This document shows, one piece after another, positions 20,600-34,939 of a DNA stretch of 64,000 nt. The first letter of the stretch is position 1, and each line of letters starts with the position of its first letter. A model generated the notes under the pieces. That model was not told the origin of the DNA and searched no databases. It saw only the letters and a list, made by a program, of their open reading frames with translations. The translations under genes were made by a program, and so were the position numbers. Origin of the DNA: Solibacillus sp. FSL H8-0538 (GTDB taxonomy: Bacteria > Bacillota > Bacilli > Bacillales_A > Planococcaceae); assembly GCF_038003525.1 (NCBI RefSeq), contig NZ_JBBOPI010000001.1, positions 3,244,501 to 3,308,500 of the forward strand, in the 5' to 3' direction.

Positions 20600-20716
20600 A
20601 TAAGTAAAAAATCTGTTTTTACTCTTTATACTAACTGCAACCATGCAACCGCTTTACAGAAAGCAGCGTGTGTATGGCAACACATGGTCGATCGCTCGGT
20701 TTAACACCTTCTTTTG
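20600..20716 (-). repeat. R4 relic of an RlmCD-like 3' end, copy D
   Basis: Read on the minus strand, a TGT AAA GCG GTT GCA TGG frame gives CKAVAWLQLV and a stop, close to the HCEAVAWLELG end of RlmCD. An AGTAAAAA/TTTTTTACT terminator hairpin follows. Upstream it keeps GTGTTGCCATACACACG like the other relics. It lies in a 370-base gap with no intact gene. Confidence 0.6.
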
Positions 20717-26614: not shown

Positions 26615-26750
26615 TACGCCTAAATTACCAAAACGAATTCTTCCCTTGAGAATCCGTTCTGGAATAAGTTTGCTAACTCCAACTACGCGACTGCTTCAAC
26701 AGTGTATGGAGTGTTTGTGGCAACACAGATGAGCTGGTGAGTTGATGCAA
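26615..26750 (-). repeat. R4 relic of an RlmCD-like 3' end, copy C
   Basis: On the minus strand the frame reads VEAVA, TAG, LELA where RlmCD has CEAVAWLELG; the Trp codon TGG has become TAG. GGATTCTCAAGGGAAGAATTC followed by GTTTT is the same terminator block as in copy A. An open frame extends upstream of the relic to about 26815 but I cannot identify it. The relic lies just downstream of the MFS gene. Confidence 0.6.
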
Positions 26751-28661: not shown

Positions 28662-28790
28662 AAAAAAACGAATTCTTTTTTTAGAATTCTTTCTTTAAAT
28701 TTATTAGACTAACTCCAACCAAGCAACAGCTTCACAATGTGTAGAGTGTATGTGGTAACATATGTGGTGCTGGTGGGTTCAATACCGCAT
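28662..28790 (-). repeat. R4 relic of an RlmCD-like 3' end, copy A
   Basis: On the minus strand the last codons read HCEAVAWLELV then TAA, almost identical to the RlmCD C-terminus. A GAATTCT/AGAATTC hairpin with T7 follows, so the relic carries a working-looking terminator. Upstream, the 25-base spacing between CCA and GTGAA is shared with the other relics and is four bases longer than in rlmCD. It lies immediately after the dihydrouridine synthase gene and may serve as its terminator. Confidence 0.7.
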
Positions 28791-30034: not shown

Positions 30035-30135
30035 CAAAAAAGCAGATGGTATAGATTTTTTCTATACCCACTGCTTTTCTATTATACTAACTCCAACCAA
30101 GCCACCGCTTCACAATGTGGTGAGTGCTGATGGTG
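30035..30135 (-). repeat. R4 relic of an RlmCD-like 3' end, copy B, with terminator
   Basis: The minus strand reads HCEAVAWLELV then TAA, exactly as in copy A. A long AAAGCAG-GGTATAG / CTATACC-CTGCTTT hairpin with T6 follows, a strong terminator. The first DUF262 gene ends about 90 bases upstream. The remaining gap from here to 29828 has no gene I can support. Confidence 0.7.
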
Positions 30136-30221
30136 GTGCAAAATTTAAAAATGGATGTAGTAGAGTCACCTAATAAAAAAATATATTGCTTGGACAATAA
30201 AACGAAATTTATATACCATAA

Positions 30222-32018
30222 TTACTTTGAAAGTTCATTACTTAAGATATTAAACATTTCATCCTTATGTTTTTCTGAAACTTCCTGATCCCATTTGCCA
30301 CCATTTAAAATCATCATTTGATCCATGATTTTTAACTTAAGACTTTGCTGTATAACACTAGAATACGAATTTACTTTTGAATTTGGTAGTAAGTTTGAGA
30401 ACTTCGAATTTCCAGAAACCGTAATCAAAGCCAAATTCCCAAAAGCATTCAAATCATTTTGTCCCCATTTTAAAGTTCGTTCTCCTTCTACCGGATTCTG
30501 TGGGTGAAAATGTTCGATAGAATTTCTAAATTGAAATTGCCAGTCATCTTTGAATGGTGAAATTATTAGCTTTTTTTTATACGAATAGCCATCTCTATAT
30601 AGAACATAATCTAAATAAGTAAACACAATTCGCTCAAAATTAAATCCACTTGCACTTTCATACTTAGATGATTTTATTTTATCTTTACAGTACTTCTCTA
30701 ATATTTCAATTAGATTACTACCCTTATCATCCATTACATCTTTTAATGCCAATGAAATCCAATGCATCGTTTTTGGTGAAGTGTACGTAATACGTAAGCA
30801 AGATTGTAAGGTTCTTAGGTGCTTATTTTTATTATCTTCTCCATTAAAAGTCCCAACATAGGTAGGTCTCCAACTCCGATTTCCATCTTTATAGGATTTA
30901 AGCCGTTGCAACGACCATTTCCCCTGTTCTTTATAGTCTTTTACAAATTCCCTCTTAATAATAAATCGGTCAAATAAGACCCTACATTTTAATAAACTAA
31001 ATAAAAAGTGTTTGGAATTCTCTTCACTATCCCAGTTATTTCTTAGGTTCACTAGAAAATTCTTATCATCCAGCATAGACTCGTCTTCCGCATCTTTTGA
31101 AATTACCTTATTTACTTGTAAAATAAAATTAGGAAATGAGATAATCGATTCAAATCGCTCATTTTCTTCAAATGTCTGTGAATCTTCGTTTTTGGTAAGT
31201 TTACCATCAGTTAGAATTTCCAACAATGTCTTGGTACCTTCAGTTGTTAAATCCGCTTGTTTAGTAAGCATTTTATCCCGAGCTTTGTCAAAGGTATCAA
31301 TTTGTAAATCCAACATAGTCCAATCTCTTAAAAAAAGTTCAGCTCTCGTTTTTAAATCAAAATTCATTTGTATATAGCTGTCCATGTTAGCGCAAGCATC
31401 CCAAATAAGTGAGCCAGCTTTCTTATCCTCTTTTGTTTTCAACTTACTTAATAACTTGGCTTTGGCTATTTCATGAAACTCTAGCTGTTCTCCACGAGTA
31501 TTCATAATTTCAAAATAATGATTTAAATCTATATCTTGCGGAACTTGTATTCGAATTAATTGTACGTTAGACAGTTTTTGCTTGAAGCTACTCGGATCAA
31601 TCTTACTACTATTAAAGTAATCTTTAATAATATCAAAACCGCGCATCAGCTCTTCCGATTGCAATTCTTCTAGTACATTATTCATTTCTTCTGTTCCGAT
31701 AATTGAAAGTGTTCGATTTGATTTTTCTCTAGCCTCAAAATATAATGAATCTTTTAATATATTTATCTCTAAATATTTTTCTAATAAATACAAGGTAGTA
31801 AGGCGCTGCTGTCCATCAATTACTTCATAAATATCCGTATCTTTTTGATTAACAATTAAAGTTCCTAAAAAATAACTGTCATTTGATGTATATATATCAT
31901 CAATTAATTGTTGAATATGCGTTTCTTCCCAGGCATAATTTCTCTGATATATAGGAATTGTATACTTTACATCACTAAATATCTTTTCTATTTGTAAAAT
32001 CTTTAATTTATCCTCCAT
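30222..32018 (-). CDS. DUF262 and DUF1524 domain protein (GmrSD/SspE-like)
   Basis: The N-terminal DUF262 domain has IPIYQRNYAWEE near residues 21-32 and the ParB-like nucleotide-binding signature YEVIDGQQRLTTLYLL near 64-79. The C-terminus has a DUF1524-type HNH-like nuclease region: IEHFHPQNP at 501-509 and FGNLALITVSGNSKFSN near 526-542. This two-domain order is that of type IV modification-dependent restriction enzymes such as GmrSD fusions. The middle 300 residues are helical. Its ATG is three bases after the stop of the upstream DUF262 gene, so the two are translationally coupled. A defence function is inferred, and the modified-DNA target is unknown. Confidence 0.85.
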   Translation of the reverse strand: MEDKLKILQIEKIFSDVKYTIPIYQRNYAWEETHIQQLIDDIYTSNDSYFLGTLIVNQKDTDIYEVIDGQQRLTTLYLLEKYLEINILKDSLYFEAREKSNRTLSIIGTEEMNNVLEELQSEELMRGFDIIKDYFNSSKIDPSSFKQKLSNVQLIRIQVPQDIDLNHYFEIMNTRGEQLEFHEIAKAKLLSKLKTKEDKKAGSLIWDACANMDSYIQMNFDLKTRAELFLRDWTMLDLQIDTFDKARDKMLTKQADLTTEGTKTLLEILTDGKLTKNEDSQTFEENERFESIISFPNFILQVNKVISKDAEDESMLDDKNFLVNLRNNWDSEENSKHFLFSLLKCRVLFDRFIIKREFVKDYKEQGKWSLQRLKSYKDGNRSWRPTYVGTFNGEDNKNKHLRTLQSCLRITYTSPKTMHWISLALKDVMDDKGSNLIEILEKYCKDKIKSSKYESASGFNFERIVFTYLDYVLYRDGYSYKKKLIISPFKDDWQFQFRNSIEHFHPQNPVEGERTLKWGQNDLNAFGNLALITVSGNSKFSNLLPNSKVNSYSSVIQQSLKLKIMDQMMILNGGKWDQEVSEKHKDEMFNILSNELSK

Positions 32019-32021
32019 GTT

Positions 32022-33326
32022 CTACCACCCATTTATCCTTTGTAATCGATTCCATACTTTTGCATATTTTTCTTTATCAATTACCCTCGTCACGTCTACT
32101 CGTTCAAATATAATGAAATTTAATTCATCTGGTTCTTGCATCTCACTTATTTTAGTGAAGAGATCCATGTCATAGTTAATTCTTTCGTGATATCCAATAG
32201 CATATTTATTTGTAGATTCTGGATATACAGATTTCATTATTACTCTAAGTGAATAACACCAAGTATATATTTGATTTAACACTGTATCCGTTAATTCAGC
32301 TTCACCAAATCTATCTGCAAAAAACAACAGTGTATTTTCATAAAGTTGCTTTATGTACATGTCCCCAGACCGCTTATCAGGAATTTCATCTGAGTCTTTA
32401 TGAAAATCAAAAATTCTTTTTTGAATCTTCTCAAGTAAACTAGCGTAATGAAGTGTATATGCAAAAAACCTTCTCCCTGCAATGACCGGTTGGATTAATT
32501 GAAATTGGTTCAACGTTTTCGTCGCAAATATTTCCATACTTCCATTACTATTCATTTGTTCTACGTAAAGATTCGTTGCTTTATGATAAACTGCATAATT
32601 GTAAATATAGTTGTTTTTTACACCTTTGAATGCTGCGATTTTCTTACTTGAGTAATCTAAACCGTCTTTCCATTTATACCATTGTGTTAATGGATAGAGG
32701 TACAACTTAAATAACTCTTCCAACTTTTGTTGGTTTTTATTTTCCCACTCGTTAATAGCCTTTATTTTTAAACCTTCATCAGCAGTATTCATCTCTCTTA
32801 AATGATAGGACTTTAGTAAATCGTGTGGCGCTAATTCTTTACCTCGTGAATTTTGTGAATCAAAAAATTGAAAGGCTTCTTGTTCCTCATCTGTTACGAT
32901 TTTTACGATTGAACATTTTTGAAGCAGATACGACATGTAATCTGTGCGTTCATTTTCTTGCAAATCGGCAACTTTTCTAAAAAGGATGTCTAAGTTATGC
33001 AAAATTGCATTTGTTGAAAGCGAACTATACCGTTCATTGAGCAAGCCTTTTTCCTTCTCGTCAAGACAATAAAGTAAAATCGATAATGTTGTGAGACGTT
33101 GTTGCCCATCCACAATATAATAAGTTTCACCCTCCTTATGGAGGATAACTGATCCTAGTCTATATTCTTCAAGTCCCTGACAATACGCATTATAAGTATC
33201 CATAAACAACGTATTGGTTGAAGCTATACTCCAACTATAAGGCCTTTGATACTCTGGAATAGCTAACTTTAAACTAAATAATTCTTTTGCAGTAACAATT
33301 GATAATTCATTTTGAATCAACCCCAT
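32022..33326 (-). CDS. DUF262 domain protein without nuclease domain
   Basis: This protein has the DUF262 hallmarks IPEYQRPYSW at 23-32 and YYIVDGQQRLTTLSILL near 68-84, plus DSQNSRGKELAPHDLLKSYH near 156-175. No HNH or DUF1524 motif is visible in its 434 residues, unlike the partner downstream. It may be the regulatory or nucleotide-hydrolysing half of a two-protein system. It is the first gene of the pair. Both genes are more AT-rich than the neighbouring rlmCD and carry no link to core pathways, which suggests horizontal acquisition. DUF262 alone cannot tell restriction from other roles. Confidence 0.83.
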   Translation of the reverse strand: MGLIQNELSIVTAKELFSLKLAIPEYQRPYSWSIASTNTLFMDTYNAYCQGLEEYRLGSVILHKEGETYYIVDGQQRLTTLSILLYCLDEKEKGLLNERYSSLSTNAILHNLDILFRKVADLQENERTDYMSYLLQKCSIVKIVTDEEQEAFQFFDSQNSRGKELAPHDLLKSYHLREMNTADEGLKIKAINEWENKNQQKLEELFKLYLYPLTQWYKWKDGLDYSSKKIAAFKGVKNNYIYNYAVYHKATNLYVEQMNSNGSMEIFATKTLNQFQLIQPVIAGRRFFAYTLHYASLLEKIQKRIFDFHKDSDEIPDKRSGDMYIKQLYENTLLFFADRFGEAELTDTVLNQIYTWCYSLRVIMKSVYPESTNKYAIGYHERINYDMDLFTKISEMQEPDELNFIIFERVDVTRVIDKEKYAKVWNRLQRINGW

Positions 33327-33518: not shown

Positions 33519-33553
33519 CGACCCATCTCATCAATTCCAGATAAGATGGGTCT
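33519..33553. terminator. Hairpin downstream of rlmCD
   Basis: GACCCATCT and AGATGGGTC, with an inner ATC/GAT pair, form a good stem. The T-rich side (TCATTTTATATT) lies on the plus strand; the minus-strand tail is GATTTGTATT, weaker. Confidence 0.6.
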
Positions 33554-33574
33554 CATTTTATATTGAAATAAATA

Positions 33575-34939
33575 TTATCCTAATTCCAACCACGCGACAG
33601 CTTCACAATGTGTCGTGTGCGGGAACATGTCTACCGGCTGCACTTCCTGCGTTTTATAACCGCCGTCCTCTAAAATACGTAGATCGCGGGCGAGTGTGCC
33701 TGGGTTACATGAGACGTAAACAACGCGTTTTGGTTTTTGTTCGATAATTGTATTTAGTAGTGCTTCATCACAGCCTTTACGCGGTGGGTCAACTACTAAA
33801 ACGTCTGCTTCTTTCCCTTCTGCGTACCAACGCGGGATGACTTCTTCTGCCGGTCCTGCCTCGAAATATGTGTTCGTAAAGCCGTTTAGTTCGGCGTTAC
33901 GTTTTGCATCTTCAATTGCTTGAGGTACAATTTCAACCCCCATGACTAGCTTTGCTTGTTGCGCTAGGAATAATGAAATCGAGCCAATGCCGCAATACGC
34001 ATCGATGACTGTTTCTGTACCTGTTAGCTGTGCATAATCAAGCGCTTGTTTATAAAGCACTTCTGTTTGCTCAGGGTTGACCTGATAAAACGAGCGCGCT
34101 GAAATTTCAAAGCGTACATTGCCAATTGTGTCTTCAATAGCATCCTTACCCCAAAGTGTCACTGTCTCGTTGCCAAAAATAACGTTTGTTTTGTCACCGT
34201 TGACGTTTTGCACGATTGACGTCACATTCGGTACAAGCTCGCGTATTTTCTCAACAGCCGCTTGTGCTTGTGGGAACTTACGTGATTTTGTGACGAGCAC
34301 GACCATCACTTCATTTGTTGCACGGCCTTTACGCACTACAACGTGACGTAGCATCCCTTGATGAGATTTTTCATTATACGTACGAATCCCTAGTGTAGCT
34401 AATTCATCCTTTAATTGACCCATAATCGCATCTGCTTCGCCTGTTTGAATTAAACAGCGCTCCATATCAACAATATTATGTGACTTTGTTTTGTAGAAAC
34501 CGGCAATTGCTTCCCCTGCTTCATTTTGTGCGAACGGGATTTGCGCTTTATTGCGGTAGTTCCACGGATTGTCCATACCTTTTACAGGAAGTACAGGTGC
34601 GTCGATTTTACCTAGACGTTTCATGACATTTGCCACCATGTTTTGCTTCCATTTTAACTGGCCCTCGTATGAAAGATGTTGTACTTGGCAGCCACCACAC
34701 TGAGAAAAATACACACATGGTGCTTCAACACGGTCTGACGATGGCTCAAGGATTTCCACTACTTTAGCGAAACCATAATTTTTCAATGTTTTTAAAACGT
34801 GGATTTCTACTGTTTCCCCTGGCAATGCGCCTTGGATAAATAACGGATAGCCATCTATTTTTGCGACTCCGTTTCCGTCATGTGTTAAATCCTCTATATA
34901 AACTGTTGTACGATCATTTTTAGTAATTGGTGCAGTCAT
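33575..34939 (-). CDS. rlmCD: 23S rRNA (uracil-5-)-methyltransferase RlmCD
   Basis: RlmCD methylates two uridines in 23S rRNA (U747 and U1939 in E. coli numbering). The N-terminal TRAM domain covers about residues 8-65. An iron-sulfur cysteine set CVYFSQCGGC lies near 75-84 with a fourth cysteine (MERCLIQ) near 162. The SAM-binding motif VIDAYCGIGSISLFLA is near 311, and the catalytic cysteine is in VSCNPGTLARD near 412. The last residues HCEAVAWLELG are the sequence echoed by the four R4 relics downstream. In B. subtilis rlmCD (yefA) lies close to dgkB, as here. Confidence 0.95.
   Translation of the reverse strand: MTAPITKNDRTTVYIEDLTHDGNGVAKIDGYPLFIQGALPGETVEIHVLKTLKNYGFAKVVEILEPSSDRVEAPCVYFSQCGGCQVQHLSYEGQLKWKQNMVANVMKRLGKIDAPVLPVKGMDNPWNYRNKAQIPFAQNEAGEAIAGFYKTKSHNIVDMERCLIQTGEADAIMGQLKDELATLGIRTYNEKSHQGMLRHVVVRKGRATNEVMVVLVTKSRKFPQAQAAVEKIRELVPNVTSIVQNVNGDKTNVIFGNETVTLWGKDAIEDTIGNVRFEISARSFYQVNPEQTEVLYKQALDYAQLTGTETVIDAYCGIGSISLFLAQQAKLVMGVEIVPQAIEDAKRNAELNGFTNTYFEAGPAEEVIPRWYAEGKEADVLVVDPPRKGCDEALLNTIIEQKPKRVVYVSCNPGTLARDLRILEDGGYKTQEVQPVDMFPHTTHCEAVAWLELG

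What the first reader, a model, noticed from the sequence alone, without database searches (positions are those of the whole stretch)
30222..33326. Two-gene DUF262 module: candidate GmrSD/SspE-like defence system
Two adjacent, translationally coupled DUF262 proteins are present; only the second has the DUF1524/HNH-like region (IEHFHPQNP ... FGNLALI). Both keep the DGQQRLTT nucleotide-binding signature. Related proteins restrict modified phage DNA (GmrSD) or phosphorothioate-linked defence (SspE). A split pair with one nuclease-free partner is not the classic GmrS/GmrD split and may be a distinct arrangement. It lies immediately downstream of rlmCD and is closed by an R4 relic.
Basis: partly seen in the sequence, partly recalled or inferred. 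Interest (0 to 1): 0.62.

Follow-up and report, generated by a model that had tools for sequence, protein, structure and literature searches.

The report
TgvAB-type phage-restriction gene pair
Two neighbouring bacterial genes encode what looks like a known two-protein enzyme that cuts phage DNA carrying chemically modified bases; the pair seems to have arrived as a small block that slotted into the end of a ribosomal-RNA methylase gene, a spot where many related bacteria carry other such blocks.

Summary
Both ORFs are at the stated coordinates. A (434 aa) has DUF262 and no nuclease; B (598 aa) has DUF262 plus DUF1524 with an intact His-Me site; they lie 3 nt apart. [quoted passage not shown] A's C-terminal half is Pfam DUF7834. 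B follows A in 77 of the 79 best-scoring loci fetched, A and B diverge together (Mantel r 0.95 over 37 pairs), and in Vibrio aerogenes the pair directly follows hsdS, as tgvAB does. I file it as a TgvAB homologue; VC1767/VC1766 were not compared and activity is untested. It is not core: 7 of 261 family genomes exceed the DUF7834 cut-off.

Less expected is how it arrived: as cargo of a 3.5-kb, low-G+C insertion at the 3' end of rlmCD that displaced the old end (R4); two relatives show the empty site. Tail-bounded units lie downstream of rlmCD in 18 of 40 sampled relatives (32 tails with the window's, 0 in both controls); 17 of those 29 units hold one or two genes. What moves them is unidentified.

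The parts
32022..33326 (-). Gene A (TgvA-like): DUF262 (res. ~16-175; QR 27-28, DGQQR 73-77, FxxxN 155-159) + helical DUF7834 (res. ~187-413); no nuclease domain found
30222..32018 (-). Gene B (TgvB-like): DUF262 (QR 25-26, DGQQR 68-72, FxxxN 169-173) + helical middle + DUF1524 His-Me nuclease (H503, N528, N537)
33573..33620 (-). Inner junction: rebuilt 3' end of rlmCD (attL-like; role inferred)
30080..30127 (-). Outer junction R4: displaced old rlmCD 3' end (attR-like; role inferred)
30128..30170 (-). Class II outer arm next to R4 (GGTGACTCTACTACATC...), recurring beside rlmCD tails in other genomes; approximate limits
33520..33552 (-). Terminator-like hairpin between rlmCD and gene A
30048..30068 (-). 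Terminator-like hairpin beyond R4; in two relatives with an empty site the matching sequence directly follows intact rlmCD
33575..34939 (-). rlmCD host gene (23S rRNA uracil-5-methyltransferase), insertion target

Best explanation
The pair is a TgvAB-type, two-protein, modification-dependent (type IV) restriction system of the GmrSD superfamily. Inferred working: A and B act together; their two DUF262 (ParB-like NTPase) domains sense modified bases in incoming phage DNA and use NTP binding or hydrolysis to license the DUF1524 His-Me nuclease of B, which cuts that DNA. A adds a second DUF262 sensor and a helical DUF7834 domain that probably serves as partner or target-reading module. Shown here: domain make-up, invariant catalytic and NTP-site residues, fixed gene pairing, joint divergence, and presence as one unit inserted at the 3' end of rlmCD. 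Inferred: complex formation, modification dependence, DNA cutting, anti-phage effect.
For: Domains. Motif residues invariant in 38 of 38 A and 37 of 37 B sequences (the window plus 37 and 36 of the 79 loci, picked by me for diversity). In the B model H503 ends a strand, N528 lies in the short turn before the next strand and N537 in the following helix, much as described for TgvB. A matches SspE (Z 14.8 over residues 1-163), DndI (Z 13.3) and weakly BrxU (Z 7.3); B matches SspE (2.3e-7) and BrxU (6.8e-4). B follows A in 77 of 79 loci (a few with a broken A or B frame) and in 6 of 6 family loci; spacing -32 to +9 nt in 73 of 74 measured pairs. Mantel r 0.95, 0 of 5000 permutations as high. Same gene order as TgvA-TgvB; V. 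aerogenes has hsdR-hsdM-hsdS-A-B. Other pairs sit near abpA or viperin. Published: both Tgv proteins, both DGQQR motifs and the TgvB His-Me residues are needed against T-even phages.
Against: VC1767/VC1766 were not compared directly; the link rests on domain make-up, order, motifs and the hsdS-adjacent V. aerogenes relative, whose A is only 137/421 identical. The papers I read test Gram-negative systems only; I saw no experiment on a Gram-positive member. PADLOC's best stretches lie within the first ~210 residues of each protein (HEC-06, Orf5, SspE, 25 of 29 families shown for A); NCBIfam gives none. The modification recognised here is unknown. Expression is untested; promoter-like matches are no more frequent than in shuffles (17 against a mean of 19.6).
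Confidence: 0.78

Rival explanations
1. B alone is an ordinary single-chain GmrSD/BrxU-type enzyme, and A is a dispensable regulator or a shield against phage inhibitors.
For: B has the full GmrSD architecture; PMC11411939 itself raises the inhibitor-shield idea for TgvA.
Against: A is found with B in 77 of 79 loci, its NTP motif is invariant, and TgvA is required in the published system. The survey was seeded with A, so B-alone genes were not counted.
Confidence: 0.12
2. An SspE/DndI-like sensor that depends on phosphorothioate marks of host DNA.
For: SspE and DndI are the best structural matches.
Against: No match to the DndC model TIGR03183 in the genome; weak evidence, since no control genome exceeded that model's cut-off and Ssp models were not run.
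Confidence: 0.04
3. A decayed or silent passenger at an insertion hot spot with no present function.
For: A relative (G002) has only a stop-ridden A remnant at the same place, downstream of rlmCD; promoter-like matches are not above chance.
Against: Both frames are intact and the motif residues are kept.
Confidence: 0.06

Closest known systems
TgvAB (Vibrio cholerae VPI-2; PMC11411939, passages and section 9 read)
   Same: Gene order; DUF262-only partner first, DUF262+DUF1524 second; QR, DGQQR, FxxxN in both; His-Me site in the second
   Different: Not inside a type I R-M operon; chromosome of a probably Bacillota host (inferred), at the 3' end of rlmCD; A about a third identical to that of the hsdS-adjacent V. 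aerogenes relative tested
GrwAB (PMC12137116, passages read)
   Same: Two DUF262 proteins, one with DUF1524
   Different: There the partner is encoded second and has a longer C-terminus of other domains; here it comes first and ends in DUF7834
GmrS1/GmrSD2 of E. coli ECOR17 (PMC12373910, passages read)
   Same: Doublet with only one nuclease-bearing protein
   Different: Sequence not compared here
Single-chain GmrSD / BrxU / SspE
   Same: B alone has this architecture; SspE and BrxU are its best structural matches
   Different: Those act as single proteins (SspE with its modification genes); here a second DUF262 protein is encoded with B
rumA/rlmCD-inserted elements (Streptococcus ICEs, PMC4701971; Listeria prophages, PMC8386393; passages read)
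   Same: Insertion at the same host gene; in the ICEs it changes the end of RumA
   Different: Those ICEs carry a serine integrase and the Listeria elements are prophages; here a 3.5-kb unit holds two genes and no recombinase

Membership tests
TgvAB homologues (two-gene family, VC1767-66 type) | Adjacent genes: nuclease-free DUF262 protein first, DUF262+DUF1524 protein second | tested here: met
[quoted passage not shown]
TgvAB homologues (two-gene family, VC1767-66 type) | His-Me H...N...N site with beta-beta-alpha layout in the second protein | tested here: met
   H503, N528, N537 invariant in 37 of 37; predicted model
TgvAB homologues (two-gene family, VC1767-66 type) | Sequence homology to VC1767 and VC1766 themselves | tested here: inconclusive
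   Only by proxy: V. aerogenes hsdS-adjacent pair, A 137/421, B 224/562 identical
TgvAB homologues (two-gene family, VC1767-66 type) | Both proteins required; acts on phages with modified cytosine | not testable with these tools
   needs phage assays
Five-gene hsd + tgvAB operon (VPI-2 form) | Embedded in a type I R-M operon | tested here: not met
   Neighbours are rlmCD and dus. Not required for the authors' two-gene family, reported 1,341 times
GrwAB | Nuclease protein encoded first, partner second with extended C-terminus | tested here: not met
   Order reversed; A is 434 aa ending in DUF7834
SspE / DndI | Companion phosphorothioation genes in the genome | tested here: inconclusive
   No DndC (TIGR03183) match in the genome, but no control genome over its cut-off either; Ssp-specific models not run
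Classic two-chain GmrS + GmrD | DUF262 on one chain, DUF1524 on the other | tested here: not met
   B carries both
Autonomous ICE/prophage at rumA/rlmCD | Integrase gene inside the inserted unit | tested here: not met
   Besides A and B the ORF list shows only short ORFs there, 121 aa at most

The most novel reading that the evidence does not exclude
The pair is one item in an unrecognised gene-capture system of this bacterial family. Small units, mostly without their own recombinase, stack up at the 3' end of rlmCD. Each brings a replacement rlmCD end on its inner side, and many carry one of at least two conserved outer arms, so the methylase gene is rebuilt at every insertion and the array keeps the order of arrival. 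An unidentified enzyme acting in trans moves them, much as integrons handle cassettes or Ccr recombinases handle SCC elements at rlmH (both recalled). TgvAB, Gabija, OLD-type and metabolic genes are among the cargo.
Probability: 0.3. Interest if true: 0.75.

Novelty: new member of a known kind. Interest (0 to 1): 0.42.

Why it matters
In the papers I saw, two-protein GmrSD-like systems were tested only from Gram-negatives. This is an intact copy from a probably Bacillota host, suited to B. subtilis tests, and it points to DUF7834 as a marker domain of the nuclease-free partner, whose role the TgvAB authors leave open. The insertion site keeps a relative order of gene arrivals at one locus and poses a testable question: what moves recombinase-less units into the end of rlmCD?

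Tried and rejected
Close relatives of A in IMG/VR viral contigs: none confirmed (a single-protein query, which finds close relatives only). A in 50,697 phage records: none at 1e-5. B there: 2 records, 9-12% of the query.

PADLOC and NCBIfam as direct classifiers: N-terminal stretches only, or none.

A palindrome upstream of A (TTGTTGAATCTTATTCAACAA) as a conserved operator: not found upstream of the 24 other A genes checked (exact 8-nt arms).

DUF7834 as a degenerate DUF1524 or as B's helical linker: profile comparison aligns only the DUF262 parts (A residues 5-197), so no support. The fold searches gave no clear hit for that half on its own; it was not modelled alone, so a known fold is not excluded. 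'DUF7834' occurs in no paper of the library.

Large serine recombinase as the mover: one lies right after rlmCD in L166 and one in L149, with a short weak match in L170. But of 21 genomes that have a tail or arm, only 9 have any PF07508 match, two of them only with stops inside, and G031, with five class I arms, has none. A tyrosine recombinase was not searched for.

Outer arms downstream of B in other TgvAB loci: of 27 checked, a class I arm in G201 (L037), about 130 nt after B and not beside a recognised rlmCD tail; one poor class II match in L038; neither arm in the other 25 (L062 offers only 170 nt there). So TgvAB is not tied to these arms in general.

Literature: two-gene DUF262 systems. 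rlmCD arrays: 'rlmCD, integration site, serine recombinase, rumA, attachment site' (20 of 102 papers listed), 'rlmCD, genomic island, hotspot' (20 of 1,251 listed), 'rlmCD, gene cassette, Lysinibacillus, Planococcaceae, integrative element' (none). They show rumA/rlmCD as a known target; I saw no recombinase-less arrays in the listings, but the lists were capped and the library lacks most subscription journals.

The host's name was not established: the tools give none. 'Probably Bacillota' is inferred from A's best named relatives and the gene content.

Full report
Observation. Two ORFs fill 30222-33326 on the minus strand: A (32022-33326, 434 aa) and B (30222-32018, 598 aa), 3 nt apart. Pfam gives A GmrSD_N (DUF262) plus DUF7834, and B GmrSD_N plus GmrSD_C (DUF1524). 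They are the only two PF03235 matches in the 3.93-Mb genome, which is the only one held for its genus.

Family. With DUF7834 as marker, 8 of 261 genomes of the same family match, 7 over the cut-off, the own genome included. In the six others over cut-off, whose wider loci I fetched (L037-L042), a B-like gene directly follows A. A B-like frame follows A in 77 of 79; L099 ends at the contig edge and L083 shows no B; in some others the A or B frame is broken (for instance L060, L077, L082, L104). Of 74 pairs whose spacing could be measured, 73 lie between -32 and +9 nt; the exception, L082, has a broken A frame. A and B distances correlate at r = 0.95 over 37 pairs (the window and 36 of the 79 loci), no permutation of 5000 above 0.41. 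Nine A homologues scanned all carry both GmrSD_N and DUF7834. In plasmids, A matches 1009 of 72,556 records, 912 of them Klebsiella, all under 60% identity. I opened six of these records: in each a DUF262 gene follows A at once; in Picosynechococcus that second gene is split and interrupted by a transposase. In E. asburiae the pair lies between a methyltransferase-helicase pair and abpA, in Pseudoalteromonas downstream of a viperin gene, in V. aerogenes directly after hsdS.

Anatomy and working. QR, DGQQR and FxxxN are invariant in 38 A and 37 B sequences, and E502, H503, N528, N537 and N542 in B. Models: A mean pLDDT 89.3, B 86.8. A's DUF262 domain matches SspE (Z 14.8, rmsd 2.5 over 159 residues), and most of A overlays DndI loosely (Z 13.3, rmsd 6.6, 336 residues); BrxU (Z 7.3) and ParB-type CTPases (about Z 4-6) follow, both below the Z of 8 under which the tool says a match may be only a common arrangement. 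B's best matches are SspE and BrxU. Profile comparison of A and B aligns only DUF262 (99.7%). By analogy with TgvAB, the pair should sense modified bases through both DUF262 domains and cut with B's His-Me domain. That step is inference.

Known or new. PMC11411939 (section 9 in full, other passages) describes TgvA and TgvB with the same domain make-up and order, both needed against T-even phages, and 1,341 tgvAB hits in 41,142 genomes. GrwAB (PMC12137116, passages) is a second such class with a different partner; PMC12373910 (passages) found a doublet in ECOR17. I file the pair as a TgvAB homologue with one membership row open (no direct comparison with VC1767/VC1766).

How it arrived. R4 (30080-30127) repeats the rlmCD 3' end. 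Of 40 relatives examined, 9 have dus within about 11.5 kb downstream of rlmCD; in G093 and G085 (L152, L156) intact rlmCD is followed at once by a hairpin and dus, and the matching sequence lies on the far side of R4 here. The simplest reading: a unit with A and B was inserted at the end of rlmCD, which was rebuilt, and the old end became R4. The unit's G+C is 31.0% against 37.6% for the window, lower than every same-length stretch taken at 250-nt steps. The 40 relatives were chosen by me from 254 family genomes with rlmCD: the closest first, then a spread of genera. A profile of 12 residues near the RlmCD C-terminus finds, at threshold 14, 32 tails on the same strand (29 in 18 of the 40 genomes, 3 here), none on the opposite strand and none in reversed sequence. 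The 29 units span 0.9-6.9 kb, median 2.2 kb; 13 hold one gene and 4 hold two. Outer ends include two recurring arms. Class I occurs in 37 of 261 genomes with 0 in the control, sometimes beside sequence that does not read as an rlmCD tail. Class II, which bounds this pair, occurs 12 times forward and never reverse in the 40 relatives plus the window, 6 times right before a recognised tail, the window's R4 among them. Cargo: two of 74 unit proteins match Old models, and GajA- and GajB-type Gabija proteins are present; the Pfam families shown (25 of 85) are otherwise mainly metabolic, transport or peptidase families, with rve transposase cores as the only recombination-related ones among those shown.

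Same site elsewhere. G002 has a stop-ridden remnant of A downstream of rlmCD. Among the 79 loci, Lactococcus formosensis (L064) has intact rlmCD directly before A, with no tail copy found, and Streptococcus orisasini (L071) has an rlmCD end, a tail relic (E 1e-5), A, B and a possible second relic that is not significant on its own (E 2.3). In G099 a tail lies just upstream of A although rlmCD is about 120 kb away. In G201 the pair ends at a class I arm at another site. Against a general link: 77 of 79 loci lack rlmCD directly upstream of A, and 25 of 27 TgvAB loci checked show neither arm downstream of B.

Verdict. A real, intact, rare TgvAB-type restriction pair, horizontally acquired by the evidence of insertion, composition and patchy spread: a new member of a known kind. 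The insertion array at rlmCD is the more open question; rumA/rlmCD is a known insertion site for ICEs and phages, but I did not find recombinase-less tail-bounded units described in the capped listings.

Noticed in passing
window 28709-28756, 26673-26698, 20632-20670; contig C2:157247: Further rlmCD-tail relics downstream of rlmCD, bounding the dus segment and perhaps the MFS segment, and one on the second contig. The 26673 copy (26 nt, E 0.31) and the 20632 copy (14.6 bits) are weak.
   Followed up: partly
L144, L145, L148; L146, L150, L151: Similar cargo in different genomes: a zinc alcohol dehydrogenase unit with class I outer arm (with a Crp-type regulator in L144 and L145), and a GDSL lipase/acyltransferase pair (L146, L150, L151). 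Grouping read from gene starts and lengths, with family tallies.
   Followed up: partly
L150 unit downstream of rlmCD: Gabija-like GajA and GajB side by side in a tail-bounded unit. tallies the matches without naming the member; the assignment to L150 is my reading.
   Followed up: no
E. coli K-12 yfjM; L049: A 269-nt stretch annotated yfjM is 95.5% identical to the 3' end of the TgvB-like gene that precedes abpA in E. asburiae, so yfjM looks like a TgvB remnant.
   Followed up: no
L044 (CP079755.1, 'Klebsiella grimontii' pNY3A): Pair with A 59.7% identical to the window's, among genes that look Bacillota-like to me; possibly a mislabelled or contaminating plasmid.
   Followed up: no
L166, L149 downstream of rlmCD: Large serine recombinase gene right after rlmCD in two of 40 relatives.
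   Followed up: partly
L181, L187: Class I arm followed by what reads like inverted rlmCD sequence, suggesting inversions at the site (read, not tested).
   Followed up: no
own genome C1:3203493-3204815: Second RlmCD-like gene, 41% identical.
   Followed up: no
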